A stretch of DNA of 64,000 bases from Hydra vulgaris (lineage: Eukaryota > Cnidaria > Hydrozoa > Anthoathecata > Hydridae): NCBI RefSeq assembly GCF_038396675.1, contig NC_088923.1, positions 966,001-1,030,000 on the forward strand, read 5' to 3'. Shown piece by piece: positions 2,595 to 57,791 of the stretch (its first letter is position 1; every line of letters starts with the position of its first letter). The notes under the pieces are model-generated. The model was not told the DNA's origin and searched no databases. It was given only the letters and a program-made list of their open reading frames with translations. Position numbers and translations under genes: made by a program.

Positions 2595-4006
2595 TTAATA
2601 ATAAGCTTTCTTGATTTTTGTCTTGTTTGCTATTGCTTTTAAATTGACCGATTGCAATTTTGATTTAAAGCTGTAAAGTCTAATTGATTGAACAACTTCT
2701 GCTGGTAGACTACTCCATCCATAAACGACTCTATTACTGAAAAAATATTGCTTTTTCATACATTTTCTAACCAATTTAGGTTTCAATCTATGTTTTGCTC
2801 GTCTTAGGTTAGATGATGGACCTGATGAGCTAATAGAGTTCATAGTATGATTTTGTTTAAAATCAATCTTTTCAATGCCTTTAAATATCTTGAATTGCTG
2901 GATCATGTCACCTCTTAGTCGCCGAGTCTCTAAAGTTGTCATATCCAAAATTTCTAATCTTTTTTTGTATTCAAGATGTCTTTGTTCCGGTATCATTTTG
3001 ATTGCTCTTAGTTGAACTTTTTCTAGTTCATTAACATCTTTGGTATAATATGGACTCCATGCTTGAATCGAAAACTCTAAATTTGGTCTAACATACGTAC
3101 AGTACAGTGTTTTTATTAGATCTTTATCTTTATACTTGAATGTATTATTTAGTAGTGATAGCATACTATTTGCTTTATTGGCTGCATATTTAATTTATTT
3201 GGCCCATTTCAAATCACTTGATATATAAACACCAGTTTCTTTTTCAAGTTTTGACTTCAATTTCCATTAATGTATTGTTATCAGCCATAAAATAAGAAAA
3301 TTCTTTATTGTTTGAACCAAAGTGCATAATTTTACATTTTTCAAAATTTAATCCTAATTTCCATTTTGTAGACCATTCTTCAAATTTGTTAATATCATTT
3401 TGAAACACGTGTGAATCATTTTGAGAAGAAAAAGGTGCAATTATCTTATCATCATTAGCATGCAAACAACATTCGTTATTAAAATATTTTGGTAAATCAT
3501 TTACAAATACCAGAAAAAGGAGAGGACCTAAAACAGACCCTTGTGGTACACCACTAAGGACATCAACCCAATCTGTCACACTTTCACCTAAAACCACTCG
3601 TATTTTTCTGTTAGCTAAGAAGCAGGCTATCCACTTAAAAAGTTTACCAAAAATACCATAAGTCAATAACTTTGATAATAACTTTTTATGCGAAATACTA
3701 TCGAAAGCTTTTTCGAAGTCTGTGTACAATACATCTATTGATGTTCCTTTAGGAAACACATCCATTAAAATATCTAGGTATTCTAATAGGTTTGTTGTAC
3801 AACTTTTGCTTTTCATAAAACCATGTTGTTTTTTTTAACGTAAATTATTTTTTATCAGGTAATGTATGATACAATCAGCTATTATTCTTTCCAATACTTT
3901 ACATGGTATTGAAGTTAACGAGACTGGTCTGTAGTTTAATGCTTTTAATTTGCTTCCTTTTTTAAAAAGTGGCATAACATTTGCCTTTTTCCACATATCT
4001 GGTATA
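2595..4006 (-). pseudogene. LINE reverse transcriptase, broken
   Basis: From 4006 down, the frame encodes IPDMWKKANVMPLFKKGS and NYRPVSLTSIPCKVLERII. After an in-frame TAA near 3834 it continues with QHGF, the DFEKAFDSISHKKL finger motif, GVPQGSVLGPLLFLVFVNDL, and LHANDDKIIAPF. The last is the catalytic YADD box with the first Asp changed to Asn. A frame change near 3200 leads to the C-terminal segment at 2595-3164, which has TLYCTYVRPNLEFSIQAWSP. The enzyme would copy element RNA at a nicked target. The stop, the frame change and the lost catalytic Asp mark it as dead. Family: CR1/Jockey-like, by motif recall. Confidence 0.87.
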
Positions 4007-18882: not shown

Positions 18883-19250
18883 TGTATGTATGTATGTATG
18901 TATGTATGTATGTATGTATGTATGTATGTATGTATGTATGTATGTATGTATGTATGTATGTATGTATGTATGTATGTATGTATGTATGTATGTATGTATG
19001 TATGTATGTATGTATGTATGTATGTATGTATGTATGTATGTATGTATGTATGTATGTATGTATGTATGTATGTATGTATGTATGTATGTATGTATGTATG
19101 TATGTATGTATGTATGTATGTATGTATGTATGTATGTATGTATGTATGTATGTATGTATGTATGTATGTATGTATGTATGTATGTATGTATGTATGTATG
19201 TATGTATGTATGTATGTATGTATGTATGTATGTATGTATGTATGTATGTA
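18883..19250. repeat. (TGTA)92 microsatellite
   Basis: An uninterrupted array of 92 four-base units (368 bp). The open frames across it (MYVC and HTYI repeats) are artefacts of the array. It is followed by ttaagccgct, and the inverse-strand array at 40794-41052 is followed by ttaagtcgct. Confidence 0.97.
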
Positions 19251-20817
19251 TTAAGCCGCTGCCTAAAAACACTTTTTTTTCTAAATACATTGGCTCGCTT
19301 TGAGTAATGTGCCCATTACTCAAAGTAATGACATTAATCCAAAAAAATAAGACAATTTGGAGTAATAATCATTTAGGGAAATTACTCTAAAGTTTTCATA
19401 TATTTGTGTTTTTTCTCAAATAATAAGTTTTTAGTAATAATATTAAGAGTTAAGTATTTTTCAAAATACTTAGTTATGAAGCAATTTCGAAGTTTATATG
19501 TCAAATGTTCACAAAAATCCCTTTATAATTTGTTTAAAAATAGTTGGGGCCAGGGTTGTAAGAAAAGGTGTATGACACACCCTTTTCCCTAAACAATGAG
19601 TTTCTTTAGAACCAATCAGCGAAATGTACCTTCTTTTGCAAATGTGAGTGAGCGCTAACTTTTTTTTTAAATTGATAAAATAAATAAACACACACATTTA
19701 ACAACTGTTCTCTTTGGCGCTGGCTGGGGCTTTTTAGCATACGCAGGTACATATATATTCAACACAACAACTTCAACGGTTTTTGTTTAAAAACTTATTT
19801 TTCTTTTTATTGAGGTCTTTATTATTGAAAATATTTAACATTTCTTAAATTAACTTTTTATGGTCTTTTTTTAATTTGTCAAAGTCTTCAAAAAATAATT
19901 TTTGATTCCAATATTTGTAACATACAAGTTTGTAATATTAGTCTGAAGAAAGTATACATATATTACTAATATTTTTGCATTTCTCTTGTTTTTGGTTCTA
20001 ATTTGGTTTTTAGCCAAAAAAAATGTCTTTTCAGAAGATCGTAAAAAAAGTTAGAGGCTTTATATATGAGTTTTACAACTCTTTCTACCTTTTATAGGAA
20101 TTGTTTGGCAGATCTGTATGAGAGAGTTTATTACCAGTTTGAATAGCTTGTAGTAACTCATTTAAAGAAACAAAAACTCAAAGACTCAACCTATATTGAG
20201 AAAACCTCAATTAAGTTGGACCAAACCTCAGCTTTAAAAAGCAAGGGCTTAACTTCCTTAGTTTTGATTTTGAGCCTGAAATTTGAATCACTTTTTCTGG
20301 ATACTTTGGATTTGGATACATAATTTGATTAAGAGTACAATCAATTACAGCTTCATCATCTAGTAGCATTGCATAAAGGAAGTTTTCTCCATAGCATCAG
20401 TAAAAGTGTTACCCTTGAGACTTTTCAATACATTCTTTTAAACTCTGTTATCCTGATTATAGAACAACTGCTGAAAAGAACATGCATTGACCAGAAAAAT
20501 GACTACAAGTAAAAGTATTACAAGTAAAAATGATACAAGCAAAAGTAAGATGATCTTTTGATAGTTTGACACAAGGCAGGTTTGACACAGTTTGACGCCA
20601 CATTACTCTTGTATTTCATTGTCTTATAGTTCATTTCATAAACTAATTCTTGTAGTTACTAATAAATACTACTCTTGTAGTTTATTTCATAAACTAATAA
20701 GTGTTTGTCTTTTTTTCCATCTACACTAATTACTTTTAATTATATAACTTCTTGACGGTAACAATTTTGTATCAATTGATTTATTCACTCTCGTTTTTTC
20801 ACAATTTTTTTTTTAAT
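19251..20817. other. AT-rich stretch without recognisable gene
   Basis: No coding family seen on either strand. A small hairpin (tttgagtaatg / cattactcaaa) lies near 19298-19323. Short open stretches near 19404-19697 match nothing I know. Confidence 0.6.
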
Positions 20818-26777: not shown

Positions 26778-26825
26778 ACGCGCGAAGTTTTATTAAGCGA
26801 AGCGCTATTTTAACGATTTTAATTA

Positions 26826-27690
26826 ATGACTAACTTAACAATAGATTTTGAAAAATTACACTTTAATGTTTTCAATTCAGCAAATGTTTTACTTAATGAT
26901 ATTTCTGACGCTGATTTGCATTTTTTTAACGAAAACAATTTTAGTTCGTCCTTTTTTGAAATAAAAACTTTTAAAAGTGAACTAAAAACGTTAAAGAGTA
27001 TTTTTACTGTAATACACATTAACATAAGAAGTATAAATAACAACATGGATAAGGTAAAACATTTTCTTATCGAATGCGATTATCTATTCAGTATGATATG
27101 CCTAACAGAAACATGGTGTTCTGACGAATCATGCAGAATAAATTCAAACTTAGAAATTCCTAACTACAAATTATTATCATCTGAAAGAAAAACTAACAAA
27201 AGGGGAGGTGGAATTATAACTTATATTAGGAATGATCAAGTTACCAAAATTAGAGATGACCTTTCGATCTCAGATACCGATAGTGAGGTTTTTACAATTG
27301 AAATAACTAGCAACAAATCAAAAAACATGCTGGTCTCCACATGTTACCGGCCACCTGAAGGTGATTTATTTAAATTTTCCAATCATTTAAAACAAATTTT
27401 ATAAAAAACAACAATGAGCAAAAAAAAATATTCTGTATTGGAGACATAAACATAGATTGTTTACAATATGATAAACATGCCAATACTAAACTTTTTTTTG
27501 ACGAAATGCTTCAACAGTACATCTTCCCAATTATTAACAAGCCAACTCGAGTAACTCCAACTTCAATCACTGCAATAGACAATATATTAACTAATTCATT
27601 GTTTGATACTTCTCTAAAGGCAGGAATAATAAAGGCAGATATATCTGATCATTTTTCTATTTTCTTCTCCTTGACGCAAGATATAAAATC
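26826..27690 (+). pseudogene. LINE ORF2 endonuclease domain, frameshifted
   Basis: The N-terminal part of ORF2. VIHINIRSINNNMDKVKHFL carries the Asn motif, ICLTETWCSDES the catalytic Glu, and ERKTNKRGGGIITYIRNDQ and CYRPPEGD follow. After a frame change at 27402 come IGDINIDCL (Asp/Asn), PTRVTPTSITAIDNILTN and KADISDHFSIFF (the SDH motif). All endonuclease active-site motifs are present; the single frame change near an A-run is the defect. The enzyme nicks the target for reverse transcription. Confidence 0.85.
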
Positions 27691-29295
27691 TAATAATAGT
27701 TGTAAAATTAAAACTTATAAAAGAAAAATCAACAAATTTGCTATTCAACAATTTAAAGACTCACTGTCGGCAGAAGAGTGGGATAAGGTATACCATGAAT
27801 GCAATCTTGGGCACACTAACTCTGCTTATAATAACTTCGAAAAAATTTTCCTAAAAAGCTATAATATGCACTTCCCAATTAAAGTAAAATTTATAATTGA
27901 AAAACATTTAAAATGTCCATGGATTACAAAAGGTATTAAAAAATCCTCAAAAAAAAAACAAAAACTTTATATTAAATACTTAAAAAATAGAAATGAGGCA
28001 AACCTAAATGATTACAAACAGTATAAAAACTTGTTTGAAAAAATTAAAAAAATTCAAAGAAAAACTATTATTCAAATAAAATAAAAAACACAAATGGTGA
28101 TATTAAGAAAACTTGGGATATCATGAAAGAAATAATTGGGATAAAACCCTGCAAAATAAATAGTTTACCTGCTCAAATTGTCATAGATAATAAAGAGTAT
28201 GACAATAATAATGCAATTTCAGAAAAATTTAATAGTTTTTTTGTCAACATAGGCCCAAATCTAGCTTCAAAAGTCAATTGTCCAAACAACTCATTTGAAA
28301 CTTATCTAACTAGTGTCAACAACGAATTAATATTTAAAGAACTATAAATTGATGAACTTGAAAATCCAATAAACTCTCTTAAAACAAACAAGTCCCCAGG
28401 TATAGATGACATTTGCAGTAATATCGTCGTCAATGTCTTTTCGGAGATACGCAAACCTATTTTCGAAATATTTAAATCATCAATTATAACAGGAACTGTA
28501 CCAGATAAACTAAAAGTAGCTAAAATTGTACCTATTTTTAAAACCGGTGAAACATTTCTAATAAACAATTACAGACCAATCTCAATACTTCCAACCTTTT
28601 CTAAAATACTTGAAAGAATAATCTATAATAGATTATATGAATACCTAATTCAAAACAAGTTCTTAAATAAAAAACAATTCGGCTTTCAAGCACAGCACTC
28701 AACAGAACATGCAATTTTAGATTTAGTTAATAGCATAAGTGATTCTTTTAATAAAAAGCAATTTGTATTAGGAACTTTTATAGACCTATCCAAAGCATTT
28801 GACACAATTAATCATGATATCTTACTTAAAAAAATGGAAAAATACGGAATAAAAAATACTAGCCTAGATTGGTTTAAAAGTTATCTGTGCAACAGAGAAC
28901 AATGTGTTATTTCGAACGATAATAAGTATTCTAATTTACTAAAAATAAAATGCGGAGTTCCCCAAGGTTCCATTCTTGGTCCTCTTTTATTTTTAATTTA
29001 TATTAACGATCTTCCACAATCACTAAAAAAACTCGATGCAATAATGTTTGCTGATGACACAAATTTATTTTATTCATCAGCATCAATTGAAAATCTCTTT
29101 GAACCTGCAAATGATGACCTTGAGAGTCTAAACATTTGGTTTAAAGTAAATAAATTATATTTAAATCAAGAAAAAACAAAATACATCTTGTTTCATTCCA
29201 ACCAACAAAAAAACAAAATAGCAAGCATGCTACCATTACTAAAAATTGATAACATAAACATCGAAAGAACTGAAACTATTAAATTTCTTGAATAA
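27690..29295 (+). pseudogene. LINE ORF2 reverse transcriptase, few lesions
   Basis: The frame runs to 28084, changes phase, and meets one stop at 28345. It is then open to 29295. It encodes LKTNKSPGIDDICSNIV, NYRPISILPTFSKILERII, KKQFGFQAQHSTEHAILDLV, FIDLSKAFDTINHDILLKKM, CGVPQGSILGPLLFLIYIND and IMFADDTNLFYS. The polymerase Asp residues in FIDLSKAFD and FADD are intact. It would synthesise element cDNA at the nicked target. Confidence 0.87.
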
Positions 29296-29906
29296 TTATT
29301 GACGAAACGATTTCTCGGAAACCCCATATAAAAACATTAAATACAAAAATATCAAAAAGTATCGGCATACTTTACTAAGTCAAAACTATACTTTCCCAGG
29401 AGAATCTGAAAGTTCTCTACTTTTCTTATATACAAAGTTATCTAACTTATGCTAATATTTCCTAGGGAAGTACAAATAAATCTAAATTAAGTTCTCTATA
29501 TACACACCAAAAACACGCATCAAGATTGATTTATAATAAAAATAAATTCACTCATGCCGATCCTTTACTTAAAAACTTGAATGCTTTAAATATCTATCAA
29601 ATTAACATCTACCAAAATGTTTTATTTATGCTCAAATATAAGCTCGGACTTGTCCCAACTCATTTTACTAATAACTTTTTTCAAACCAACGCCAACAGAT
29701 ATACCACACGAGGAACCGGAAACTTTACATTGCCCATAAAAAAAACAAAATTTTCGAGATTTTCAATTGTATACCGTGGCCCCTATTTATACAACAAAAC
29801 AATACCTCAAAGTATAAAACTTACTAAATTGGATAATCTTATTGCCCTGAAGAAAAAACTAAATGATCTCATAATTAACAAAACCAATTTTATTGATATG
29901 TATTAA
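29295..29906 (+). pseudogene. LINE ORF2 C-terminal domain
   Basis: After a frame change at about 29292 the sequence reads IIDETISRKPHIKTLNTKIS and YFSYIQSYLTYANI. An open stretch 29526-29906 follows (YNKNKFTHADPLLKNLNALN; YRGPYLYNKTIPQSIK) to the natural stop. These blocks follow the reverse transcriptase in L2/CR1 elements. Confidence 0.8.
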
Positions 29907-32949: not shown

Positions 32950-34690
32950 ATTAACTTCTATTTGTTAAACCTATATATAAATCAGGCGATAAAACGGATA
33001 TTGGAAACTATAGACCAATATCTATACTTTCCATTTTTTCTAAGATTTTTGAGCGAATTATGTTCAATAGGTTATATGCATTTTTTAAAAATAATGACTT
33101 ATTCTATTCAAAACAGTTTGGATTCCAGAAAAGCACTTCAACTGAACATGCAATACTTCACTTAATTAATGAAATAAAAAACTCTTTTGCAAACGGAGAA
33201 TTTACTTTAGGCATGTTTATTGACCTCTCCAAGGCCTTTGACAGAGTTGATCATAAAATAATGATAAAAAAGCTTATGATGTACGGCATAAGAGGCGTAC
33301 CCTGCAGGTGGATAGCAGATTACCCGAGTAAACGTACACAGTCCATATATAACGGAAATAAAAAACTAACAAATTCATCTTTAATTTCTTGTGGAGTGCC
33401 CCAAGGATCTATTCTTGGGCCTAATATACTATATAGGATCTATTCTACTTTTCCTAATATACGTGAATGATCTCTGGAGAGCGACAAATATATCAACAAT
33501 AATGTTTGCTGACGACAGTAACTTTTTTACTTCAGGAAAAGATATACCTCAACTCTTTGTACAAATGAACAACGAGTTAGATAAAATTTCACTATGGTTC
33601 AATGCAAATAAACTTTTTATTAATTCGAGTAAATCAAAGTTCTCATTATTGCACCCTTTAAAAAAAAAAAAAATTCCTATTTCTTTTCCAAAACTAGTTA
33701 TTGAAAACACAGAAGTTAGTCGCGAAAGAGTCACAAAATTTCTTGGTGTTCTCATTGACGAAAATATTACTTGGAATAAACATATTGCCTATATTGGAAT
33801 CAAAATATCAAAAGGTATTGGCGTTCTATATCAGTCACGGGGTTTACTTAATAAGCATCATCTAAAACAAATCTATTTCAGTTTTATACAAAGTTACTTG
33901 AATTACGCGAATATTGCGTGGTGTAGTACATCTAAAAGCAAGCTTGAAGCACTCTATCGAAAACAAAAACATGCCTTAACAATAATAAATTTTAAAAATA
34001 AAAACGAACATGCAAAACCACTGTTCGAAATTATGAACATCTTTACGTTATACGAGATAAACGTTTATAAAATTTTATGTCTCATGTACAAAAGTAAATT
34101 TTAATGCCCCTCAACTTTTAATGATCTTTATGAAATAAAACCTAACATTAAGTATACTTTACGCACAACAGGCTTAATTGAACCATTGTGCAAAACTAAA
34201 CAAGAACAATTTAAAATTACGTATCGTGCTCCGCATATCTGGAATAAAATCTTAGCAAAATATAGTAATTTACAAGATGTAAACAATATAAATTGCTTTC
34301 AAAAACTAATAAAAAAGAGTATTTCAAAGTATAAAAATCTTATCAATGATTTCTTTTAAACTGCTTTGTTTTGTTTTTGTTTCTTTGACTGTTTGTTTTA
34401 TTTGTTCTTGTCTTTTTATATTGAATGTTTTTGGTGTTAACACTATTTACCTTAGTTAATTAAGTTTTGCTTTTAACAATATTATAGGAATTTAATATTG
34501 TAAAAACATAACTAGTACAACGGTTCTTGATGATAAGACTTAATGGTCTTCTGAAAGTTTCCCGCGTTTTAATATATTTTTGTATAACTATCTCTTATTA
34601 TTTTGTCTTTGATTTTTTTTTATATTTATAACTGGATTATTTTTGAAAGAATAAGAGTATCTTGCATTATATTACGGAATTTAATTGTAA
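32950..34690 (+). mobile_element. L2-type LINE, 5'-truncated
   Basis: Begins within the reverse transcriptase (VKPIYKSGDKTDIGNYRPIS) and runs to a 3' UTR with ggttcttgatgataagactt near 34521. It is the same family as the LINE at 25990, but clearly diverged. 34370-34690 is non-coding 3' sequence. Confidence 0.8.
32960..34360 (+). pseudogene. LINE reverse transcriptase with 22-bp insertion
   Basis: Encodes NYRPISILSIFSKIFERIMF, KQFGFQKSTSTEHAILHLIN, FIDLSKAFDRVDHKIMIKKL and CGVPQGSILGP. A 22-bp insert at about 33424-33445 shifts the frame. It continues LLFLIYVNDLWRA, IMFADDSNFFTSGK, TKFLGVLIDENITWNKHI and YLNYANIAWCSTSKSKLEAL to a stop at 34104. The last part (APHIWNKILAKYSNL) follows in the same frame. 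Both catalytic motifs are intact apart from the insert. The N-terminal endonuclease is missing. Confidence 0.85.
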
Positions 34691-36113: not shown

Positions 36114-36683
36114 TCACTTTTTATAGTCTTTTAGTGTTACGAAGGCTTGGGCAGGGGCAGTTGATTCGATTCTATTATCAAGGTTTATTTTTGTAGCAAT
36201 ACTTTGCGCTTCTAAATTAATTGCCTTTTCAAAAGTTTTACTGGCTTTTTCATAAGAACTAGTAATATTGTCGCGTAAAATTTTTTCATAGTTTTCTGTT
36301 GTGAGTTGGTAAATATTAATTGTTTTATCAGCAAAAACCAAAATATTTGGGTTTGATTTAATTTTTTTAATATCTAACTTTATTTCTGTTTGAAAATCGT
36401 TTTTTATAGGGTGAAACTTTATTGTTTTAATTAAATGTAATAGGTCATTTTCAAATATTTCTAAATCAGTTATTAAAGAGGGGATAGTTTTTGTTTTAAA
36501 TCCATAATTATCATTATTATTGAATGTATCATCTGTTTTTGTATTTGGTTTTAAGAAAAAATGGGCTTTCCAACGAATTCTTTTATCAAAATGCTCAACT
36601 TTTTCAATCAAAGAAATAGTATAACTTTTTTCATCTAGTATAGGTATATTTTTCAACGAATAAGTGAAATTATTAGTTTCCAT
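36114..36683 (-). pseudogene. PLE reverse transcriptase N-terminal fragment, copy 1
   Basis: 189 residues: RIRWKAHFFLKPNTKTDD, then YGFKTKTIPSLITDLEIFEN, LLHLIKTIKFHPIKNDFQ and NPNILVFADKTINIYQLT, ending [12 protein letters not shown]. This is the conserved N-terminal region of PLE reverse transcriptase, which normally continues LKDHKPNF into the finger domain. Here it stops, so the catalytic palm is missing. The open frame has no lesions within the fragment. Faces away from the plus-strand PLE 3' part next to it. Confidence 0.75.
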
Positions 36684-36734
36684 ATTTAGAAAATATATAG
36701 AAAAATTTATAGAAATATATAGAAAGATTTGAAA

Positions 36735-37110
36735 TAATACACATGCAAATCAAGAATGCTTGTTAAACAAAATATCGGAATTAATTTCTAAATGTAGGCA
36801 CGAAAATAAGTTTCTCGTAAAAAACTATAAAAATAAATGAGTTCAAATAATATTTACATTAACTACCCTTTTTAAATAAACATTTTAAAAAAATAGCATA
36901 AGTAATCATTTCTAAAGAATTCTTTTTATAATAGTGTCAGCAAATTCCACAAAGGTGTGAAAATTTACAGTAGTTAAGACATTTGCAACTTCCTGTAATT
37001 TATTTTTTGGTATAAATTGAAGTTTTATTAATTTGATCATTCATTTCTGATGAATCTTTGTTGATGAAACACAGTGTCAAATGGAAAAAATTTTTGTTAA
37101 GTGATTTATA
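36735..37110 (+). pseudogene. PLE 3' end: nuclease tail and UTR, copy 1
   Basis: Starts THANQECLLNKISELISKC and RHENKFLVKNYKNK to a stop near 36840, the last residues of a PLE GIY-YIG protein. The UTR is shared with 32400-32690. It ends in a hammerhead fold and then a TA array. Confidence 0.75.
37040..37085 (+). ncRNA. Hammerhead ribozyme, intact core
   Basis: Stem I ttcattt / aaatgga (7 pairs, one wobble), core ctgatga, stem II atc / gat with loop tttgtt, gaa, stem III aca-cag-tgt (possibly 4 pairs), and cleavage-site c. Every invariant hammerhead base is present in order. Predicted self-cleavage follows 37078. The short stem III is typical of PLE hammerheads. Confidence 0.8.
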
Positions 37111-38024: not shown

Positions 38025-38594
38025 TCACTTTTTATAGTCTTTTAGTGTTACGAAGGCTTGGGCAGGGGCAGTTGATTCGATTCTATTATCAAGGTTTATT
38101 TTTGTAGCAATACTTTGCGCTTCTAAATTAATTGCCTTTTCAAAAGTTTTACTGGCTTTTTCATAAGAACTAGTAATATTGTCGCGTAAAATTTTTTCAT
38201 AGTTTTCTGTTGTGAGTTGGTAAATATTAATTGTTTTATCAGCAAAAACCAAAATATTTGGGTTTGATTTAATTTTTTTAATATCTAACTTTATTTCTGT
38301 TTGAAAATCGTTTTTTATAGGGTGAAACTTTATTGTTTTAATTAAATGTAATAGGTCATTTTCAAATATTTCTAAATCAGTTATTAAAGAGGGGATAGTT
38401 TTTGTTTTAAATCCATAATTATCATTATTATTGAATGTATCATCTGTTTTTGTATTTGGTTTTAAGAAAAAATGGGCTTTCCAACGAATTCTTTTATCAA
38501 AATGCTCAACTTTTTCAATCAAAGAAATAGTATAACTTTTTTCATCTAGTATAGGTATATTTTTCAACGAATAAGTGAAATTATTAGTTTCCAT
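38025..38594 (-). pseudogene. PLE reverse transcriptase N-terminal fragment, copy 2
   Basis: Encodes the same 189 residues as 36114-36683 with no difference that I can find. The identity shows that the tandem duplication is recent or an assembly artefact. Confidence 0.75.
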
Positions 38595-38645
38595 ATTTAG
38601 AAAATATATAGAAAAATTTATAGAAATATATAGAAAGATTTGAAA

Positions 38646-39016
38646 TAATACACATGCAAATCAAGAATGCTTGTTAAACAAAATATCGGAATTAATTTCT
38701 AAATGTAGGCACGAAAATAAGTTTCTCGTAAAAAACTATAAAAATAAATGAGTTCAAATAATATTTACATTAACTACCCTTTTTAAATAAACATTTTAAA
38801 AAAATAGCATAAGTAATCATTTCTAAAGAATTCTTTTTATAATAGTGTCAGCAAATTCCACAGAGGTGTGAAAATTTACAGTAGTTAAGACATTTGCAAC
38901 TTCCTGTAATTTATTTTTTGGTATAAATTGAAGTTTTATTAATTTGATCATTCATTTCTGATGAATCTTTGTTGATGAAACACAGTGTCAAATGGAAAAA
39001 ATTTTTGTTAAGTGAT

Positions 39017-49035: not shown

Positions 49036-50189
49036 TATTTATTTTTTTAATTTTGTAATTTTATTTTTTTAATTTGTAATTTTTTATAATATACTGTTGT
49101 ATATTTGGTTTGTTTTTGTCTTTTTTAATTGAAATTTTATTTGTTTTTCACCAATTAAACTTAAATATAGTTAAATTGATTCACTACCAAATTATCATAA
49201 TATGATGCTACATTCTATTTGTTAAAAATAATGAATTGGTAGTTTAATTTATTGAAAACACTGCTTTTAAAATTAACTATAAGGGAAGACTATTTAGCTA
49301 TATAAATGCAACTTATTTATATCTATTTGATTTTTTATCTTTAATGTTTTTAGTTTGGTTCCTTGAAGCATTTGTTTTTTTGCTTTTTAGTTAAAATATT
49401 TTAAATCAATTGTAATGTCTTAAATTTAACTAAAGTTTACTAAAAGCCAACGTGAAATAACGTCATAAAACAACACCGACAAGTTGCATCATGACAGCAG
49501 TTTAAGTATGACAACAGGTTACCGAAAAGCAGGTAAATTGTATTCCTGTTGTTTTTTTTTGTTTTGTTCTGTTTTTCTTTTATGTCTACTCATCTGTTAC
49601 AATTTTTATTTTAGGTTTGTCATATGACGCAATCAAAAGATCAAAGTTTACATACTTTTTACAATTTGTTATACACAAGTTTGATTGTAAATCGACTTTT
49701 ATTTGTTTGAAACGTATTTTTACTCAATTGCTTAGTTATTTATCATAAATTTATTTAGTTGTGTGCATTTATCGTTTTAAAGACAATTTCTTTTTTTAAA
49801 GAAACATGTATCAAGGGGATACCAAAAAATTAATAACTCATAAATAATTTACGTTCACTTAATATTAATTTTATTAATTAAAGTTCATGTTATAAAAAAT
49901 ATAACAAGGGTTTATCTTTAATCTTTCGTCAATTTAAGGCATAATGAAGTGTTATTATTTTGTGTCAGTAACTAAAAACGTATTGTGTTGAACTTAGTAA
50001 TGTCTAGGAAAATGGTTTTGCCATACACTGATATGACCTATGACAGTTGTAAAATACTCAAATAACGTTAAATAATTGGTAAATTAATTTATTTTAATTT
50101 TACAGATGGTTTAATTTTTTAATTTGAAGGCGTTTGTTTTAATAAATTAAGTAACAGACCGACCGTAACCCATATTACGGGTTGCTTTC

Positions 50190-50220
50190 TATGGAACGCC
50201 AAAGCTGCCTTAAGTGCGTT
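50190..50220 (+). repeat. Left terminal inverted repeat
   Basis: Perfect match over 31 bases to the reverse complement of 56309-56339. Binding and cleavage site for the element's integrase (inferred). Confidence 0.9.
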
Positions 50221-50224
50221 CCGT

Positions 50225-50750
50225 TCATTATGTGATGTGCTCACTGCATTATTTGCTGTGTTTATTGCATTATACGGTGTGGTGACTACATTATATAATG
50301 CGCTCATTGCATTATACGATGTGGTGATTACATTATACGCTGCGCTAACTGCATTATGCGGTGCGATAACTACATTATGCGCTGCGCTAAATACATTATA
50401 CGCTGCGCTAACTACATTATACGCTGCGCTAACTACATTATAGGCTGCGCTAACAACATTATACGCTGTGCTTACTACATTATACGAGCTGCTCACGACA
50501 TTATATGATGTGCTCACAACATTATATGATGTGCTAATGCATTATATGATGTACTTCTACATTACATAATGTGCGTACTACTTTATATGATGTGCTCACT
50601 ACATTATATGATGTGCTCACTACATTATATGATGTGCTCACTACATCATATGATGTGCTATTACATTATATAATGTGCGCCCTACATTATATAACGTACT
50701 TACATCATGATATGATGTGATCACTATTTTATAAAGTTTTGATACTTTAT
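50225..50750. repeat. Left 21-bp iteron block
   Basis: About 24 degenerate copies of a 21-bp unit, consensus near gctgcgctaactacattatac, grading to gatgtgctcactacattata. The block runs from the terminal repeat to just before the start codon of gene 1. Iterons at both ends suggest transposase binding and perhaps transcriptional control. The short frames across it are artefacts. Confidence 0.85.
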
Positions 50751-50773
50751 AGATTACACGTATAATTAATAAA

Positions 50774-52117
50774 ATGGCAGACCATCAACTAAAGAGAGTA
50801 ATGCAAGATCTTGGACTTTCTCATTTGATTACAAACTTTCAACGGGAAAAGATAACTATTGATCTGATTTTAAAGTTGTCTATGAGAGACTTTGAAGTAT
50901 TAGATGTATCAAACAAGCAAAAAGTAATGGAATTAAAAGTTAAATGTTCAATCTATAATACGAAACTACTTAATAAGTATCCAAGTGAACGTGGAGGACC
51001 TTTAAAGTTTGAAATACCTTGTCACGTGTTAGAGAATCTCTTAGAAGAAGATTTTACAATTAAAGACATTTCTAGACTTCTAAATGTTGCTGAGAGAACT
51101 GTTTACCGTCGAATGTACGATTACAATCTCAAAAAGTATAATTTTTCTAATATTACAAACGATGATCTTGATTCGCGAGTAGCTTTATTAACAAACGAGT
51201 TTCCAAAATGTGGAGAAAGAATGCTTAACCAAATATTAAAAGGTCAAGGCATAAGTGTCCGAAGATCGGTATTGCGAAAATCAATATTAAGAGTAGACAA
51301 TTTAGGAAACCAAGAGCGAAAGAAAAAAAGTCTTCATCGCAGAATCTACAATGTAAAAGGGCCAAATCATCTATGGCGCGTTGATACGAATCATAAGTTA
51401 GTACGTTGGTATTTTATAATAACAGGAGTTATAGATGGTTTTAGTCGTTTGCCAGTTGCCCTTGGGTGTTCAACCAACAACAAAGCTAACACCGTATTTA
51501 ATTGCTTTTTAAAAGGTGTTAATGAATTTGGGTTGCCAAGTAGAGTAAGATCAAACAAAGGTATGGAAAATGTGCGTATTGCAGATTACATGATTGCAAA
51601 TCGTGGAGAATGTAGAGGAAGTATGCTAACCGGTAAGAGTACTCATAATCAAAGAATAGAAAGATTGTGGAGAGACGTTTTTTCTGGTGTATTAAGCTAC
51701 TATTACGAGCTATTTTATTACATGGAAGATTGTTACATACTCGATTCTTCCAATGCAGATTTGTTCGCATTACACTACGTTTTTCTTGAAAAAATTATTG
51801 ATATATGGAGACGCGCTTGGGCAAACCATCGTATGCAGACAATTAAGACATCACCCTTAAAACTTTGGGTGAGTGGACAACTCAATAATCCAATGAGTAT
51901 TAAACTTAACAATAACGAGTTTGAAAACTACGGCACGGAAGGAGTTCTTCATGAATATTTCAATTCTGATCAACGTCCGATATTTGAAGCACCCGATATA
52001 GGCCAAGCACTGTTATACTTGGAACTAGATAAAGTCCCTAAATCTTTATTTGACGTTGATTCTGGTATAACTATGTATACAAGAGCTAGAGATATAGTTA
52101 AACTATTTTATAACTAA
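50774..52117 (+). CDS. SAM-like/integrase-type DD35E transposase, D-to-N
   Basis: 447 residues, one uninterrupted exon; start is the first ATG after the iterons. Residues 5-58 look like a SAM domain (LKRVMQDLGLSHLI... ILKLSMRDFEVL). About 82-120 is a helix-turn-helix (FTIKDISRLLNVAERTVYRR). About 195-320 is an rve integrase core: NHLWRVDTNHK (D204), VIDGFSRLPVALGC, RVRSNKGMENV (N261) and THNQRIERLWRDV (E296). The second and third positions are 35 apart, as in DD35E enzymes. At N261 the family norm is SDKGGEN, so Asp has become Asn (codon aac, 51554-51556), and strand transfer should fail. Otherwise the gene is intact. It would cut and insert the element's own ends. Confidence 0.85.
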   Translation: MADHQLKRVMQDLGLSHLITNFQREKITIDLILKLSMRDFEVLDVSNKQKVMELKVKCSIYNTKLLNKYPSERGGPLKFEIPCHVLENLLEEDFTIKDISRLLNVAERTVYRRMYDYNLKKYNFSNITNDDLDSRVALLTNEFPKCGERMLNQILKGQGISVRRSVLRKSILRVDNLGNQERKKKSLHRRIYNVKGPNHLWRVDTNHKLVRWYFIITGVIDGFSRLPVALGCSTNNKANTVFNCFLKGVNEFGLPSRVRSNKGMENVRIADYMIANRGECRGSMLTGKSTHNQRIERLWRDVFSGVLSYYYELFYYMEDCYILDSSNADLFALHYVFLEKIIDIWRRAWANHRMQTIKTSPLKLWVSGQLNNPMSIKLNNNEFENYGTEGVLHEYFNSDQRPIFEAPDIGQALLYLELDKVPKSLFDVDSGITMYTRARDIVKLFYN

Positions 52118-52457
52118 TTATGTTAATCCTAATCAAATACTTTTTAATAATTTTTGTGAATATTTTTACCTAAGGTGGAGAACTATTAACCCCACTTTTT
52201 GATGGCCGACCAATTTGAAAATTTACATAACAAAATCGAACTATTTTTCAAATTTAGTTTCGCTATGAAAACTACATAACAATTTTAATTTTTTTAAATT
52301 TAATTTCACTAGGAAATCTACATAACAATTTTAATTTTTTCAAAACAATTTAAAGTTATAAAGCTCAACAAAGAAAAACATTAACACTTAAAACATTTTT
52401 GGTAAAAAAGTTTACAAAATGCCAAAAAAGGCATTATTAAATGCATAGTCATAAATT
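52118..52457. other. Intergenic space between convergent genes
   Basis: AT-rich, no gene. It contains a repeated taacaattttaattttttt motif (near 52279 and 52324) and should hold the poly(A) signals of both genes. Confidence 0.6.
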
Positions 52458-55400
52458 CTAATTAATCTTATTTTCGATGGAAGGCCTTGGTAGATTTAAT
52501 ACACTGGAACATGTATTTGAAGTCGGAATCCAACCATTTTCAGCACCAATAAATGAAATGGATGGATGGAGTTCATATCCTAACACAGGTTCTGCTTCTG
52601 CCCCAGTCACAAATTGTAAAACCCTTTCTAAAGTAACGCCGTTTCTTCTACCAGCTTTAAAAAAAATTTTAAATAAATGAAGTGTAATTTGCACAATGAA
52701 TAAATAATAATGAATTACATAATTAAGAAACTATTTAAAACTGGTATTAAAAATGTATACTAATATACTTACCAGCATAAACTAATCGATATTAATATAA
52801 TAACCAACATATACTAAAATACTTACAAGCAGCTTCTCGAAGGTACTTGTTAAACTTAGCATATATTTTAGATTGAAACACGTAATCATTTGATCCTATT
52901 TCTGCGAATGATGGCTTTAAAAGTGTTGACAATCGCTTGAATGTCAGTTTTTCTACATCACAAAAATTAAAAAGCTGCAAGATGGCTGGTAGAGAATGAG
53001 CAATCTATAAACCAAATCAAACAACTACAATAAATGTATAAAAAAAAATTAAGTGCAATAAAAACATTTGGGATATTATCAGACAATGTAAAACATCATA
53101 ATATTAAACAGCAATGTTACTGATTGTTTTGCTATAGCAAAACAATCAGTAACACAGCTGTTTCTTACTTGGTATATTCCAAACTCTTTAAAGGCAGATC
53201 GCATTTCATTATAGCAGGGTTTCGGCGCAGTGGCATAAAAAATCTCATCTAATCTGACTTTGCATAGAAATTTTGGAAGTTTACCATTCTGCAATATAGA
53301 AAAACCTGTGATGAAAAAATAATACAAAAAAGTTATACAACATCTTTTTTTAACAATTCAAAATAGTTAAATGTTATATATCTATATAATTCAATTTATA
53401 TAACTGTTATATAACTCATTTAAATGTGTATATGCACGCAAGTAATTCTAAAGTTGTAGAAAAAAATATTTATGAATATATTTTTTTTAGTTTTATAAAA
53501 AATTTAAATGCATGTTACACATGCATAGTTTATACATAAATTTTTACATAAACAAATAAACAATGCTAGAATAATTAAAGTCGTACAAAATACTAAACCA
53601 ACTGCATAATAAACTTCAGGGAATGAATCGAGTATTCCATTGTCAAAATATTTTTCCCTAATCTTTCGTAAAACAATTTCAAAGAACTCTTTCCTGAGAC
53701 CTCCAAAATCTTTCGCATCCTTATTTTATGAACTTTTAAAAAATTGTTCTTCTAATTATTATATCAAAAATAAATCATCAAAAACTATTTTATTATACAA
53801 ATGAAATCATTTTTAATGATATAATTAATGTTATAAGAGTTACCTCATTATAAAATTGTACTTCCAGAGTAATTAATTTATTTTTAATATCCAGCAACTC
53901 TTCGAACGCAGTCGCCAATATATTTGAACGATCAGCAAGAATAAAAGATGTCTCTCCATCTGGACAAACAGCAAGGTCTGTGATTTCAAGAGGCCTTCCA
54001 GTGATCAACTTTTTTTGCATATATCGCAATATTTCAACAGGATTTTCTGAAATATTTTTCTCATGACAGTATTGGATAATGTTCTCTATCTTTGTATCTA
54101 AATCTTCTTTAAAAAAATCTACATTTTTATCACTGTTTATTGAAGAAATAGATAGATCACTCTCATTTATGTCTTGTTTAGATTCCAAAATGGGTAAAAA
54201 CAAATTCACATTTGGTGATTCATACTCTGGCTGCTCATACTGGGGTAAAGGTTGCATTGAAAAACAATTTTGTTGCGTAAAATTATTATTTAAAATATTA
54301 CAATTGTCATTGTCTTTGAATGGAGAAAACAGAGGAAGTTCAAAAACATCATCATTTTCGTCACTGCTAACATTAAAGCAAATCTGTATGTGACTTCTTA
54401 ACTCATTTAAGAGGAAATCTTTCCCACAACTCAAACACTTGTTCTTTAAAGTAACTATAAGCTCTTCATTTATTGATATAGTCGACAAAGACTTTTGTAT
54501 TGGTCTAATATACACTTTTCCTTGGCCTCCGCCCATACTTAATTTAATTTCTTTTGCAGCAAGACTACAGTTTAATAATACTAAATCTCGAGAATTCGCT
54601 AAACAAGCCATTAACTCAATTCCACCAGATTCTTTAACTTGTGGAAAATTTTCAACAATTTTACTGTAAACAGCTTCTTCATTGTCATTTATTTCAAGCT
54701 TAATTTTTTTATACCCAAGGCCTGCTTTTTGTAAAACTATTTTTTGGTCAGTAGTAGGAATTTTAGTAGCATACATATTTGCCATACACATAAAATTAAC
54801 AGTCCAATTTCTTCTCCTCTCTTCTTCTGCTTTGAGACGAGCATCTTAATATATTAGAAATATTTTTTCAGGTTTCTTCTACTAACTGTGTATAATTTTA
54901 AATCAAAAACATAAAATATAATCTCAAAATCATTTACACAAGTGTAGAATAAATATTTGACAATTAGATGTTAATTAAAAAACTAAGAATCTATAATAAT
55001 TTGTTAAAACACAATGTTTGTAGCTTTTATAGACAATTTTTAAATTCTAATAATAAAACTTTAAAGTTTTTTCTTTTTTTTTTTTTTAAAAGGTTATTCT
55101 TATTGTAGATTTTCGAAATTTAACATGAAAAAATATTAATTGCAAAATTTTTAAATATTACAGTAAAAAGTAAATTTACCAAAAAAGTAAAAAGTAAATT
55201 TACCAAAAGAACTTGAAAAATGGACAATTTGATTAATCAAAAACAAGTAACATGTTACTTGTTTTTGATTATTCAAAATGTTAACAAAACATTAATGTTA
55301 TTATTAACAATATTGTAAACAGTGTCTTTTGCAATAGACGCTGTCAGTGTTAGCCAATTTAAAAATTCAATTAATTTGTTAAATAATAACTTTTATTAAA

Positions 55401-55837
55401 CTAAATTTTTTTTTTGTTAATTTATAGTTAACTAAAGTAACTATATGTAACTAGTTACAAATTCTACATAGTTTTAACTTAATATTCTTGAAAAATACCT
55501 TTACTCCCTCTCATTCTTCTTCCTCTGAACAAACGATCTCTTTCAGATACCCTTGCTTGAAATTTTCCGAGATTTAATGCTGGTGAAAAAGTGAAATTTT
55601 TATTTTGATTTACATCGTCTTTCGATGACAAGGTACATTTTCTTGCTTGTTGTTGCTGCTTGTTTCTACAAGAATCTCTAAGTCTGATTTTATCACCAAG
55701 TGTGATAACTCCTCATCAGATGCAGCTAAAACTGACAAAATATCAAATCTTTCTGTTTTAAATCCGTTAATGAGATTTTGTAAACCAATATTTGTTAAAA
55801 CATCAACTATCTCATTATCTGCGACAAAGTATGCCAT
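52458..55837 (-). CDS. SAM-like/HECT E3 ubiquitin-ligase-like gene of the transposon
   Basis: Six exons in phase with gt/ag sites: 55837 to about 55505, 54847-53844, 53719-53594, 53288-53169, 53004-52827 and 52654-52458. Exon 1 has a SAM-like domain (IVDVLTNIGLQNLINGFKTE) and a basic tail (RDRLFRGRRMRGSK). Exon 2 has a ubiquitin-like region (residues TDQKIVLQKAGLGYKKIKLE on) and a zinc-knuckle-like CLSCGKDFLLNELRSHIQIC, then an acidic linker. Exons 3-6 form a HECT domain: KDFGGLRKEFFEIV, EVYYAVGL, VTLERVLQFVTG and PTSNTCSSVLNLP, with the catalytic Cys codon at 52509-52511. It may transfer ubiquitin to a partner. Exon 1 needs one base inserted near 55640 (A-run) to stay in frame. Confidence 0.75.
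53115..53154. repeat. Perfect 19-bp hairpin in intron 4
   Basis: tgttactgattgttttgct is exactly inverted around at. It sits in the intron between HECT exons 4 and 5, just after the donor site. Confidence 0.9.
54900..55500. other. Intron 1 of the HECT-like gene
   Basis: About 650 AT-rich bases between donor gtattt (near 55503) and acceptor ag at 54848. It holds the palindrome at 55235-55270 and a tandem pair of agtaaatttaccaaaa near 55170-55210. Confidence 0.6.
55235..55270. repeat. Perfect 36-bp palindrome
   Basis: aatcaaaaacaagtaaca is exactly inverted with no loop. Confidence 0.9.
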
Positions 55838-55914
55838 TTTTAAAATTTAAATACATTTAATAAAAACCCCTCTTTTCTAGATTTCACCCTCCTTTAAATC
55901 TCCTCCGTATAAAG

Positions 55915-56308
55915 AATGACCACATAATGAAGTGAGCACATCTTATAAAGCAATGAGCGCATCATATAATAGAGTGAGCATAACCCACAATGTAGAAGCA
56001 CTTCATATAATGCAGTACTACATCATATAATGTAATGAACGCATCATATAATCTAGTAGCACATCATATAATGCATTAGCACATCATATAATGTAGTCAG
56101 CGCAGCGTATAATGTAGTTAGCACATCATATAATGTAGTACGCACAGCGTATATTGTAGTTAGCACAGCGTATAATGTAGTCAGTGCAGTGTATAATGTA
56201 GTTAACGCAGCGTATAATGTAGTTAGCGCAGCATATAATGTAATCACCACAACGTATAATGCAATAATCACAGTAAATAAGGTAGTGAGGACATCGCATA
56301 ATGAACTT
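55915..56308. repeat. Right 21-bp iteron block
   Basis: The same 21-bp unit as the left block in inverted orientation (gcagcgtataatgtagttag), about 18 copies. It lies between the start of the HECT-like gene and the right terminal repeat. Confidence 0.85.
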
Positions 56309-56339
56309 AACGCACTTAAGGCAGCTTTGGCGTTCCATA
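56309..56339 (-). repeat. Right terminal inverted repeat
   Basis: Perfect 31-base inverted match to 50190-50220, followed by the gctttc target duplication. Confidence 0.9.
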
Positions 56340-56727
56340 GCTTTCTGCCAGTTATTACTATTATTATATTACATTAAATCTAAAAATATTTGTTGTACAG
56401 TACAAAATATTTGTTGTACTTAAAAATATTTGTTGTACAGTAAGCAAAAAAATAAATGGCACAAACTTTTTTTTTTTGAAAAAATTTGTATAAAATGTTT
56501 AAATAACGGTAGTTGATTTTTGTTTTTAAAGGAAAAAACTATGAACTATTTGAAAACAGCATTATATTGAAGTATTCTATTCGAAAATTGTCAAATATAA
56601 GTTTATATGACGTATAAATACCAACTAAACTTATATTGATCAAGTATTTTCTAGCAAAAAAAATAAAGACACAAATAAAAAAAAATCCAAAATTAGACAA
56701 AAAAATTAGTATTTAGACAAAAAATTA

Positions 56728-56756
56728 AGTATGTCAATATTTATTATTGACATACT
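56728..56756. repeat. 12-bp hairpin
   Basis: agtatgtcaata is exactly inverted around five bases near the Tc1 3' end. Confidence 0.8.
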
Positions 56757-56761
56757 AAATA

Positions 56762-56832
56762 ATCGATACCTCGACGTCGGCATGCAGTTATTCTTTGCCA
56801 GAATAACTGCTTGCCGACGTCGAGGTATCGAT
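56762..56832. repeat. 33-bp hairpin inside Tc1 coding sequence
   Basis: atcgatacctcgacgtcggc... (56762-56794) is inverted at 56800-56832 with one mismatch and a 5-base loop. One arm encodes the transposase C-terminus (SIPRRRQAVI), so coding sequence was copied backward. Confidence 0.9.
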
Positions 56833-57791
56833 ACCACAAGAGATTTGGTTTCTTCTTGAGTGATTTTCTCACACGCTTCGACTATTGCTGCTTTTCGAGA
56901 ATTTTGCCTTCTGTAAGCTCGATCTCCAATTTTCCGTTTTTGATTGTACCACAAAGGGTCAATCGGATAAAGATCGGGGGACTGGGTAAAACATTCCATC
57001 ATATTGATATTATTTTTTTAGCAATTGTTGCTATGGCAGTATGTTTTGAGTCATTGTCCTGTTGAAAGACGAAGTTGTTTCCAAATCTAAATTTACGAGC
57101 GGAGGGTTTCAAATTTGCTTTAAAATGTCTATATACGAACTAGCGTTCATAATTGATTCAATGAAAGTCAATTTTCCAGCTCCTCGCCAAGCTATTGATC
57201 TCCACACCATAAAATATCCACCACCGTGTTCTACTGCTCCTCTCATGCAACTCAATTTGTATGCCTCACCTTGTTTTCGCCAGACTTTTTACTGTCCATC
57301 CGAAGAGATCAGGTTAAATTTGGATTCATCACTTCAAATTACTTTCTTCCAGTACTCGATTGTCTTGTCCGCATACTTTTTTGCAAATAATAACCTTTGT
57401 TTCATATGTCTTAGAGTCAAATAGGGTTATTGCGACATACACTACCATGAAATCCTTGCTCTCTACATCTATTTTGGATAGTTTGAGCTGAAATTATGAT
57501 TTTGTGGTCGTTTTTAACTTTATCTGCAATTTATTGAGCAGCTTCAAATCTGTTTTTCTTCCCTTGTAAAATAATGTTTTTATCAATAGCAGCAGATGTT
57601 TTTCTTTTGCGGCCTCTTCCTGATAAATCAGTTGTAGTCCCATTCAAATTATGCTTTTTTATAATGTTGCCGACAGTTCGAAAAGAGAATCCAGTCTGTT
57701 TAATAACTTCTCTCTTGGTCTTGCCACTATTTACCAAATCCGCAACAAAATATCTTTGAAAAATTGTCCAATGTCGTTTTACAATGCGCAT
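56800..57791 (-). pseudogene. Tc1 transposase pseudogene
   Basis: 57531-57791 encodes the N-terminal helix-turn-helix pair (RYFVADLVNSGKTKREVIKQ, GFSFRTVGNIIKKHNLNGTT, SGRGRKRKTSA). Across stops and frame changes come HERSSRTRWWIF, FQQDNDSKHTAIATIAKK (the second Asp block, FQQDN-PKHTA), QSPDLYPIDPLWYNQKRKI and SIPRRRQAVI. The first catalytic Asp region is damaged. The 3' end is doubled back by the palindrome at 56762. Confidence 0.85.

What the first reader, a model, noticed from the sequence alone, without database searches (positions are those of the whole stretch)
50184..56345. Complete two-gene transposon pairing a SAM-integrase with a SAM-HECT ubiquitin-ligase gene
Seen: perfect 31-bp terminal inverted repeats, a gctttc 6-bp target duplication, iteron blocks at both ends, one intact 447-residue integrase-type gene and a convergent six-exon gene whose exon phases all agree. 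Family knowledge: rve integrases transpose DNA, and HECT domains transfer ubiquitin through a Cys, which is present. Inference: the ligase may modify a host repair, chromatin or defence protein, or the transposase, and the SAM-like domains at both N-termini may let the two proteins bind each other. A mobile element carrying its own E3 ligase would be unusual biology.
Basis: partly seen in the sequence, partly recalled or inferred. Interest (0 to 1): 0.88.

Follow-up and report, generated by a model that had tools for sequence, protein, structure and literature searches.

The report
Transposon carrying a ubiquitin-ligase gene
This is a worn copy of a DNA transposon that carries, beside its transposase, a second gene for a HECT-type ubiquitin ligase; sibling copies and a second, only distantly related family in the same genome carry the same pair, so the ligase looks like a lasting part of the element and not an accident.

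Summary
The element is real: 50190-56339 (6150 bp), perfect 31-bp TIRs, 6-bp TSD gctttc, 21-bp repeat arrays inside both ends. Termini (TATGG..CCATA), TSD length and transposase core (rva_4, E 1.8e-66) fit IS3EU/GingerRoot. The six-exon structure is right: a sibling on another contig (98.55% identical) has both genes unbroken and its own TSD. Of 14 other loci read with a matching end, 10 keep both genes. A second family (transposase about 41% identical, other TIRs, 6-bp TSDs) has the same convergent pair in 12 of 12 copies read, but no SAM was found in either gene. HECT relatives occur in bivalves and an anemone; 15 of 16 that reach the C-terminus have the Cys motif. The pairing is thus old and kept. 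What the ligase modifies is unknown; I favour the transposase complex. Searches of the open-access library found no HECT gene in IS3EU. New variant of a known kind.

The parts
50190..56339 (.). IS3EU-type DNA transposon, 6150 bp, defective copy
50184..50189 (.). left copy of 6-bp target site duplication gctttc
56340..56345 (.). right copy of target site duplication gctttc
50190..50220 (+). left terminal inverted repeat, 31 bp, begins TATGG
56309..56339 (-). right terminal inverted repeat, 31 bp, ends CCATA
50226..50733 (.). left array of 21-bp repeats, about 24 units
55924..56303 (.). right array of 21-bp repeats, about 18 units, inverted to the left array
50774..52117 (+). transposase, 447 aa: N-terminal SAM-like domain, helix-turn-helix region, rva_4/rve DDE core
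51383..51385 (+). codon of catalytic Asp204
51554..51556 (+). codon 261, Asn here, Asp in 120 of 120 listed relatives
51659..51661 (+). codon of catalytic Glu296
55499..55837 (-). HECT gene exon 1 with SAM domain; frame broken near 55708
53844..54844 (-). HECT gene exon 2: middle domain, CxxC..H..C finger, start of HECT
53599..53719 (-). HECT gene exon 3
53169..53305 (-). HECT gene exon 4
52827..53004 (-). HECT gene exon 5
52458..52654 (-). HECT gene exon 6 with catalytic Cys; frame broken near 52464, so that the C-terminal tail (52415-52456) is out of frame
52509..52511 (-). codon of the HECT catalytic Cys (NTC motif)

Best explanation
SHOWN BY SEQUENCE: this is a degraded member of a two-gene cut-and-paste-type DNA transposon family of the IS3EU/GingerRoot kind. 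The two genes face each other: a DDE integrase-type transposase and a HECT ubiquitin-ligase gene. The pairing is older than the split between two families in this genome whose transposases are about 41% identical, and the ligase is kept with its catalytic Cys and tail in both. INFERRED: the transposase binds the TIRs and the 21-bp subterminal repeats (two helical turns, so on one face of the DNA), cuts out the element and inserts it with a 6-bp stagger. The ligase works in trans for the element: it is brought to the transposase-DNA complex (in this family plausibly by SAM-SAM contact, since both proteins begin with a SAM whose nearest solved relatives are polymer-forming) and puts ubiquitin on the transposase or on a host protein there, so as to release or limit the complex or to clear a host repressor or repair block. 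This copy can probably do neither step itself; with perfect ends it could still be moved by an intact sibling's transposase. My odds: identity and conserved pairing about 0.93; the ligase acts on the transposition complex rather than on host defence elsewhere about 0.45; SAM-SAM recruitment in this family about 0.4.
For: Ends and TSD; rva_4 core and Foldseek matches to IstA, TnsB and retroviral integrases; IS3EU traits in print: TA..TA termini, 6-bp TSD, TAYGG..CCRTA in rust fungi. Sibling L009 with both genes unbroken, D, D and E present, own TSD TATTCA. Exact 6-bp TSD in 6 of the 8 copies of this family with both ends seen, the window included; 3 of 3 in family 2. Both genes in 10 of 14 sibling loci read and in 12 of 12 copies read of family 2, convergent in each. 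HECT: Pfam above cut-off, closest solved sequence AREL1 with Cys aligned, HECT folds matched by the model of a relative, Cys motif in 15 of 16 relatives that have the tail, Cys motif in 6 of 8 and tail in 8 of 8 of the first family-2 copies. SAM: hhalign probability 98.2% between the two SAM profiles; nearest solved SAMs tankyrase and bicaudal-C, ANKS6, tankyrase; five-helix SAM in both models.
Against: No expression or activity data. Family 2 keeps the gene pair with no SAM found in either gene. The two SAMs are not clearly closer to each other than to host SAMs: against the transposase-SAM profile 24 HECT SAMs score median 30.3 bits and only 3 exceed tankyrase-1 (34.9); against the HECT-SAM profile 53 transposase SAMs score median 36.2 and 8 exceed bicaudal-C (41.6) (only 53 of 120 and 24 of 48 proteins gave a SAM stretch to the motif cut). 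dN/dS of HECT against L009 is a mix (0.37 to 3.96 in 12 copies), blurred by decay after insertion, so it does not by itself show selection. Direct linkage outside this genome rests on one contig-length match (11,836 bp for P0002 and P0131). One relative with the tail, P0144, lacks the Cys motif, and so do two of 8 family-2 copies. Exon 3 has a weak donor (GTTTAG) in both the window copy and L009. Transposase model confidence is modest (pLDDT 68, pTM 0.39).
Confidence: 0.85

Rival explanations
1. The HECT gene acts on the host and not on transposition: it degrades or modifies silencing, repair or innate-defence proteins so that the element escapes control, as has been proposed for TET/JBP dioxygenases on fungal transposons.
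For: Same cargo logic in print for IS3EU and other transposons with TET/JBP. A HECT E3 with its own finger and middle domain could choose a host substrate. The pair is kept without a detectable SAM in family 2, so SAM-mediated binding to the transposase is not obligatory.
Against: Does not explain why, in the SAM-bearing family, both proteins carry a SAM while in the other family none was found in either (two families only).
Confidence: 0.35
2. Passive passenger: a host HECT gene captured once and carried without benefit to the element.
For: Transposons do pick up host genes; most sibling copies read here are decayed.
Against: 12 of 12 copies read of a second, far diverged family carry it in the same arrangement; Cys motif and tail are retained there in 6 and 8 of 8 and in 15 of 16 database relatives that reach the tail.
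Confidence: 0.06
3. The HECT gene is a host gene family and the element merely inserted next to one member.
For: Relatives are annotated as HECT-type proteins of bivalve genomes, with no transposon named.
Against: The gene lies inside the TIRs and moves with them: a copy on another contig with its own TSD has the same layout, as do nine further sibling loci and 12 family-2 copies.
Confidence: 0.01
4. Ginger1/Ginger2 (Gypsy-integrase-like) transposon rather than IS3EU.
For: Shared integrase fold; Ginger1 is abundant in Hydra and carries OTU or Ulp1 domains.
Against: Ginger1 makes 4-bp TSDs (CCGG or CCGT/ACGG) and begins TGTNR; Ginger2 elements make 4-bp TSDs, TDD-4 and TDD-5 5-bp. Here TSDs are 6 bp and termini TA..TA, the IS3EU traits.
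Confidence: 0.03

Closest known systems
IS3EU/GingerRoot superfamily (PMC10045372, passages seen)
   Same: TA..TA termini, 6-bp TSD, integrase-type DDE transposase
   Different: The term HECT does not occur in that paper's main text
TET/JBP-bearing IS3EU of rust fungi with alpha-kinase gene (PMC12730594, passages seen)
   Same: IS3EU with TAYGG..CCRTA ends, and a second enzyme gene opposite in orientation to the transposase
   Different: The extra enzymes are an alpha-kinase and a dioxygenase, not a HECT ligase (HECT and ubiquitin do not occur in the main text); host is fungal
Ginger1 (PMC2836005, passages seen)
   Same: Integrase-type transposon, also in Hydra, tied to the ubiquitin/SUMO pathway through OTU or Ulp1 protease domains
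   Different: Ginger1 adds proteases that remove ubiquitin or SUMO, fused to the transposase; here a separate ligase gene; other TSD length and termini
RAG1-RAG2 two-protein transposon (PMC4411706, search listing only; RING activity of RAG1 recalled)
   Same: Transposase with a partner gene; RAG1 also has a ubiquitin-ligase domain (recalled)
   Different: Unrelated transposase; RING inside the transposase and not a separate HECT protein
AREL1-type HECT ligases
   Same: Closest solved HECT sequence, catalytic Cys in aligned motif
   Different: Host gene; only about 50 residues near each end of the HECT region align in that search

Membership tests
IS3EU/GingerRoot | Termini TA..TA | tested here: met
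   TATGG..CCATA in the window; family 2 TATGC..GCATA; in siblings L010, L011 and L020 one end reads ..CCATT
IS3EU/GingerRoot | TSD usually 6 bp | tested here: met
   exact in 6 of 8 copies of this family with both ends seen, one with 1 mismatch (L019), one without (L012); 3 of 3 in family 2
IS3EU/GingerRoot | rve-type DDE transposase | tested here: met
   PF24764 E 1.8e-66; D204, D261, E296 in sibling L009; in the window copy residue 261 is N
IS3EU/GingerRoot | No HHCC zinc motif before the core | not tested
   Pfam reports helix-turn-helix there, below cut-off; HHCC was not searched for as such
IS3EU/GingerRoot | Groups with Repbase IS3EU transposases in a tree | not testable with these tools
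   Repbase sequences and supplements not available
Autonomous transposon | Intact transposase catalytic triad | tested here: not met
   N261 in this copy; met in sibling L009
HECT E3 ligase | HECT profile above curated cut-off | tested here: met
   27.7 bits against 23.9 for the exon 6 frame; L009 protein 25.4
HECT E3 ligase | Catalytic Cys in the conserved motif | tested here: met
   NTC in the window; the family profile aligns with AREL1 TAHTC; 15 of 16 relatives with tail
HECT E3 ligase | C-terminal tail in frame | tested here: not met
   out of frame in the window copy; in frame in L009
HECT E3 ligase | Ubiquitin transfer from E2 to Cys to substrate | not testable with these tools
   needs biochemistry
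SAM domain | SAM profile or fold | tested here: met
   Pfam SAM_1 E 0.0019 and 0.096, both below cut-off, in the window, 0.014 in L009 HECT; 13 of 21 HECT relatives match SAM_1 at 0.01; five-helix bundle in both models
Ginger1/Ginger2 | 4-bp TSD (5 bp in TDD-4/TDD-5); TGTNR ends in Ginger1 | tested here: not met
   TSDs are 6 bp, ends TATGG; Ginger traits

The most novel reading that the evidence does not exclude
IS3EU elements of animals are two-component machines in which the HECT ligase is a working part of transposition: transposase molecules line up through polymer-forming SAM domains along the 21-bp repeat arrays, the ligase joins the same polymer by its own SAM, and ubiquitylation of the transposase (or of a blocking host protein) licenses or dismantles the complex, a ubiquitin-based counterpart of the ClpX step in Mu transposition (recalled). 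The second family, in which no SAM was found, would do the same through another contact.
Probability: 0.2. Interest if true: 0.88.

Novelty: new variant of a known kind. Interest (0 to 1): 0.66.

Why it matters
Deubiquitinating and SUMO-protease domains on transposons are known, and it has been suggested in print that the ubiquitin pathway takes part in transposition (PMC2836005). A conserved ligase gene travelling with a transposase gives the other half of that pathway and a clean test: a natural pair of genes, in two diverged families of one genome, with and without SAM domains. It also warns genome annotators that some HECT-type proteins listed as host genes in bivalves and cnidarians may belong to transposons.

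Tried and rejected
An intron inside exon 1 to rescue the frame at 55695-55712: rejected, no donor and acceptor in phase among those scored, and relatives and the sibling copy show continuous SAM coding there. SAMs of the two genes as sister copies from one duplication: not supported. Looking for contigs with both genes in viral contigs and genome contigs: pattern matches but no relatives. Shared contigs among the protein hits: by eye over the listed lengths, 11,836 bp is the one informative match; a 62.65-Mb contig shared by P0060 and P0125 says nothing about distance. Rfam: 0 matches. dN/dS as proof of selection: inconclusive. Empty site of the window insertion: asked twice, never answered. 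Genome-wide count of HECT exon 2: asked six times, never answered, so the number of HECT genes without a transposase nearby is unknown.
Full report
OBSERVATION. The element runs from 50190 to 56339 (6150 bp). Its ends are identical for 31 bases as inverted repeats, 85% identical over the first 250 bases, and it is flanked by gctttc on both sides. The first 24 bases of the TIR occur twice in the window, at the two ends only, with 0.00 expected in 100 shuffles. Inside each end is an array of 21-bp units, about 24 on the left and 18 on the right. The + strand gene 50774-52117 is an open frame of 447 aa with an integrase core of the Pfam family rva_4 (PF24764, E 1.8e-66) and weak SAM and helix-turn-helix matches below their cut-offs. 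On the - strand a convergent gene has exons 55837-55499, 54844-53844, 53719-53599, 53305-53169, 53004-52827 and 52654-52458, with GT..AG ends that join in phase; the exon 6 frame alone matches HECT above the curated cut-off (27.7 bits against 23.9).

Both genes are damaged in this copy. At residue 261 the transposase has Asn; all 120 listed relatives have Asp there, and 119 of 120 have D at 204 and 119 of 120 E at 296. Of 9 sibling copies in which codon 261 can be read, 8 have Asp (L009, L010, L011, L013, L014, L016+17, L018, L019) and L023 has Gly. Residues 204, 261 and 296 are the D, D and E of the core. The HECT gene needs two reading frames across the SAM domain and again two across the C-terminal tail when compared with relatives; compared with the sibling copy L009 these are gaps of 16 and 17 bases. 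The out-of-frame tail ends in FFGIL. That a HECT tail is needed for ligase activity is recalled, not tested.

OTHER COPIES. The genome that holds the window has 911.5 Mb in 15 contigs; size and chromosome number fit Hydra, which is recalled and was not named by any search. A search with the left end gave 70 matches, a lower bound, at 18 places by my count, the window included. I fetched 15 stretches that cover 14 of the 17 other places; three were left. L009 (contig C2, 16558200-16564453) is 6254 bp with perfect TIRs and TSD TATTCA, 98.55% identical to the window copy over 6075 aligned bases, with a 451-aa transposase with D, D and E, and a 683-aa SAM-HECT protein unbroken from SAM to tail through the six exons. 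Both genes can be seen in 10 of the 14 loci (L009, L010, L011, L013, L014, L015 with 21% of HECT only, L016+17, L018, L019, L023); L012 and L022 (a 9% fragment) keep HECT only, L021 transposase only, and L020 is a 302-bp derivative with ends only. Several of these loci show only one recognisable end in the stretch read. TSDs are exact in 6 of the 8 copies with both ends seen, the window included (L016+17 has its ends 15.2 kb apart); L019 has one mismatch and L012 no match. L020, without genes but with an exact TSD, suggests that copies were moved in trans.

A SECOND FAMILY. A search with the transposase protein gave 63 matches in the genome. Besides siblings there is a group about 41% identical. 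I fetched 8 and then 4 of these loci; 12 of 12 carry a HECT gene facing the transposase gene. Their TIR is TATGCCTGCCGG.., with TSDs TGAAAG, TTTTAG and CTCTAC in the 3 loci where both ends lie in the stretch; the first 8 copies are 95.8-98.4% identical to one another (28 pairs), and the last 4 are about 96-98% identical to them. All three catalytic motifs are found in 8 of 8, the HECT Cys motif in 6 of 8 and the tail in 8 of 8 of the first 8 loci. Neither Pfam (5 frames from 2 copies) nor the SAM profiles built here give a significant SAM match in this family, while the same profiles find it in both genes of the window copy and of L009. The pairing is thus older than the split of the two families, and SAM goes with SAM; but this is two families only. 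Thirteen further transposase loci were not read.

RELATIVES ELSEWHERE. The transposase has 2413 relatives at E 1e-5 (120 listed), named ones among them from Hydractinia, Clytia, the coral Desmophyllum and several bivalves. The HECT protein has 23 and, as a profile, 28 (three of them the same), both from capped candidate lists; named ones are from bivalves (such as Saccostrea, Pinctada, Solemya, Ostrea, Sinanodonta and Mytilus) and the anemone Exaiptasia. Of the 48 distinct proteins 16 reach the tail and 15 of these have the Cys motif (P0144 does not); 41 of 48 have a CxxC..LRxH..C finger and 26 of 48 the SAM motif. P0002 (transposase) and P0131 (SAM-HECT) are both listed with a contig of 11,836 bp, probably the same contig; this is an inference from length.

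DOMAINS AND STRUCTURE. In the AlphaFold2 model of a bivalve relative (P0122; pLDDT 71, pTM 0.40) residues 7-61 form a five-helix SAM, and Foldseek matches HECT domains (best E 3.9e-10; whole-length TM-scores are low, 0.14-0.21 by query). The window transposase model (pLDDT 68, pTM 0.39) has a five-helix SAM at residues 2-59, and its best Foldseek matches are IstA, TnsB and retroviral integrases (E 1.9e-4 to 8.9e-4 for the best eight). Low pTM means that the domain arrangement is not to be trusted. The transposase SAM is closest to tankyrase SAMs, the HECT SAM to bicaudal-C, ANKS6 and tankyrase SAMs; that these form polymers is recalled. The two SAM profiles align (hhalign 98.2%, E 3.9e-14), but a control shows that they are not clearly closer to each other than to those host SAMs (3 of 24 and 8 of 53 score above the best host SAM).

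MECHANISM. Shown: the gene pair, its conservation and the ends. Inferred: transposase binding to TIRs and 21-bp arrays, 6-bp staggered insertion, and a ligase that acts for the element in trans. Whether its substrate is the transposase complex or a host factor cannot be told from sequence; I put 0.45 on the former and 0.35 on host targeting.

KNOWN OR NEW. IS3EU is a known superfamily with TA..TA ends and mostly 6-bp TSDs (PMC10045372, passages); rust-fungus IS3EU have TAYGG..CCRTA ends, and the TET/JBP-bearing ones an alpha-kinase gene opposite to the transposase (PMC12730594, passages). Ginger1 transposons in Hydra carry OTU or Ulp1 domains, and the authors suggest a role of the ubiquitin pathway in transposition (PMC2836005, passages). 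In the held library 32 papers name IS3EU with transposon (I opened two of them); HECT with IS3EU gave 0 papers, HECT with transposase, superfamily and target site duplication 0, HECT with four further terms 0, HECT domain with DNA transposon 2, HECT with transposon-encoded 4, HECT with transposase and terminal inverted repeats 7, E3 ubiquitin ligase with Repbase and four more terms 3; none of these listed titles concerns such an element, and I did not open them. Sterile alpha motif with transposase and DNA transposons gave 0. Repbase and most subscription journals are not in the library, so a Repbase entry that notes the HECT gene may exist. Hence: new variant of a known kind.

Noticed in passing
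L018, SAM junction: Copy L018, only about 80% identical to the window copy, has the same 16-base-short SAM junction as the window copy; a recurrent deletion between short repeats or gene conversion.
   Followed up: partly
window 36114-36749 and 38025-38660: Two identical 211-aa open frames 1911 bases apart, with similar AT arrays beside them: probably a recent tandem duplication.
   Followed up: no
window 56706-57139: Open frames that look by eye like Tc1/mariner transposase remnants directly beside the element; no search made.
   Followed up: no
window 2595-3834, 26823-29906, 32955-34104: Reverse-transcriptase-like frames of LINE type, judged by eye.
   Followed up: no
window 18883-19251: Perfect (TGTA)n array of 92 units.
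   Followed up: no
L020 (C8:13956316-13956617): 302-bp ends-only derivative with exact TSD GTAATC, as expected of a non-autonomous copy.
   Followed up: partly
window 50346, 50398, 50627 against L009: The left 21-bp array differs between the two copies by whole 21-bp units, so its length varies while the spacing is kept.
   Followed up: no
PMC12730594: TET/JBP-bearing fungal IS3EU also have a second enzyme gene (alpha-kinase) opposite to the transposase; a second enzyme may be a general trait of IS3EU.
   Followed up: no
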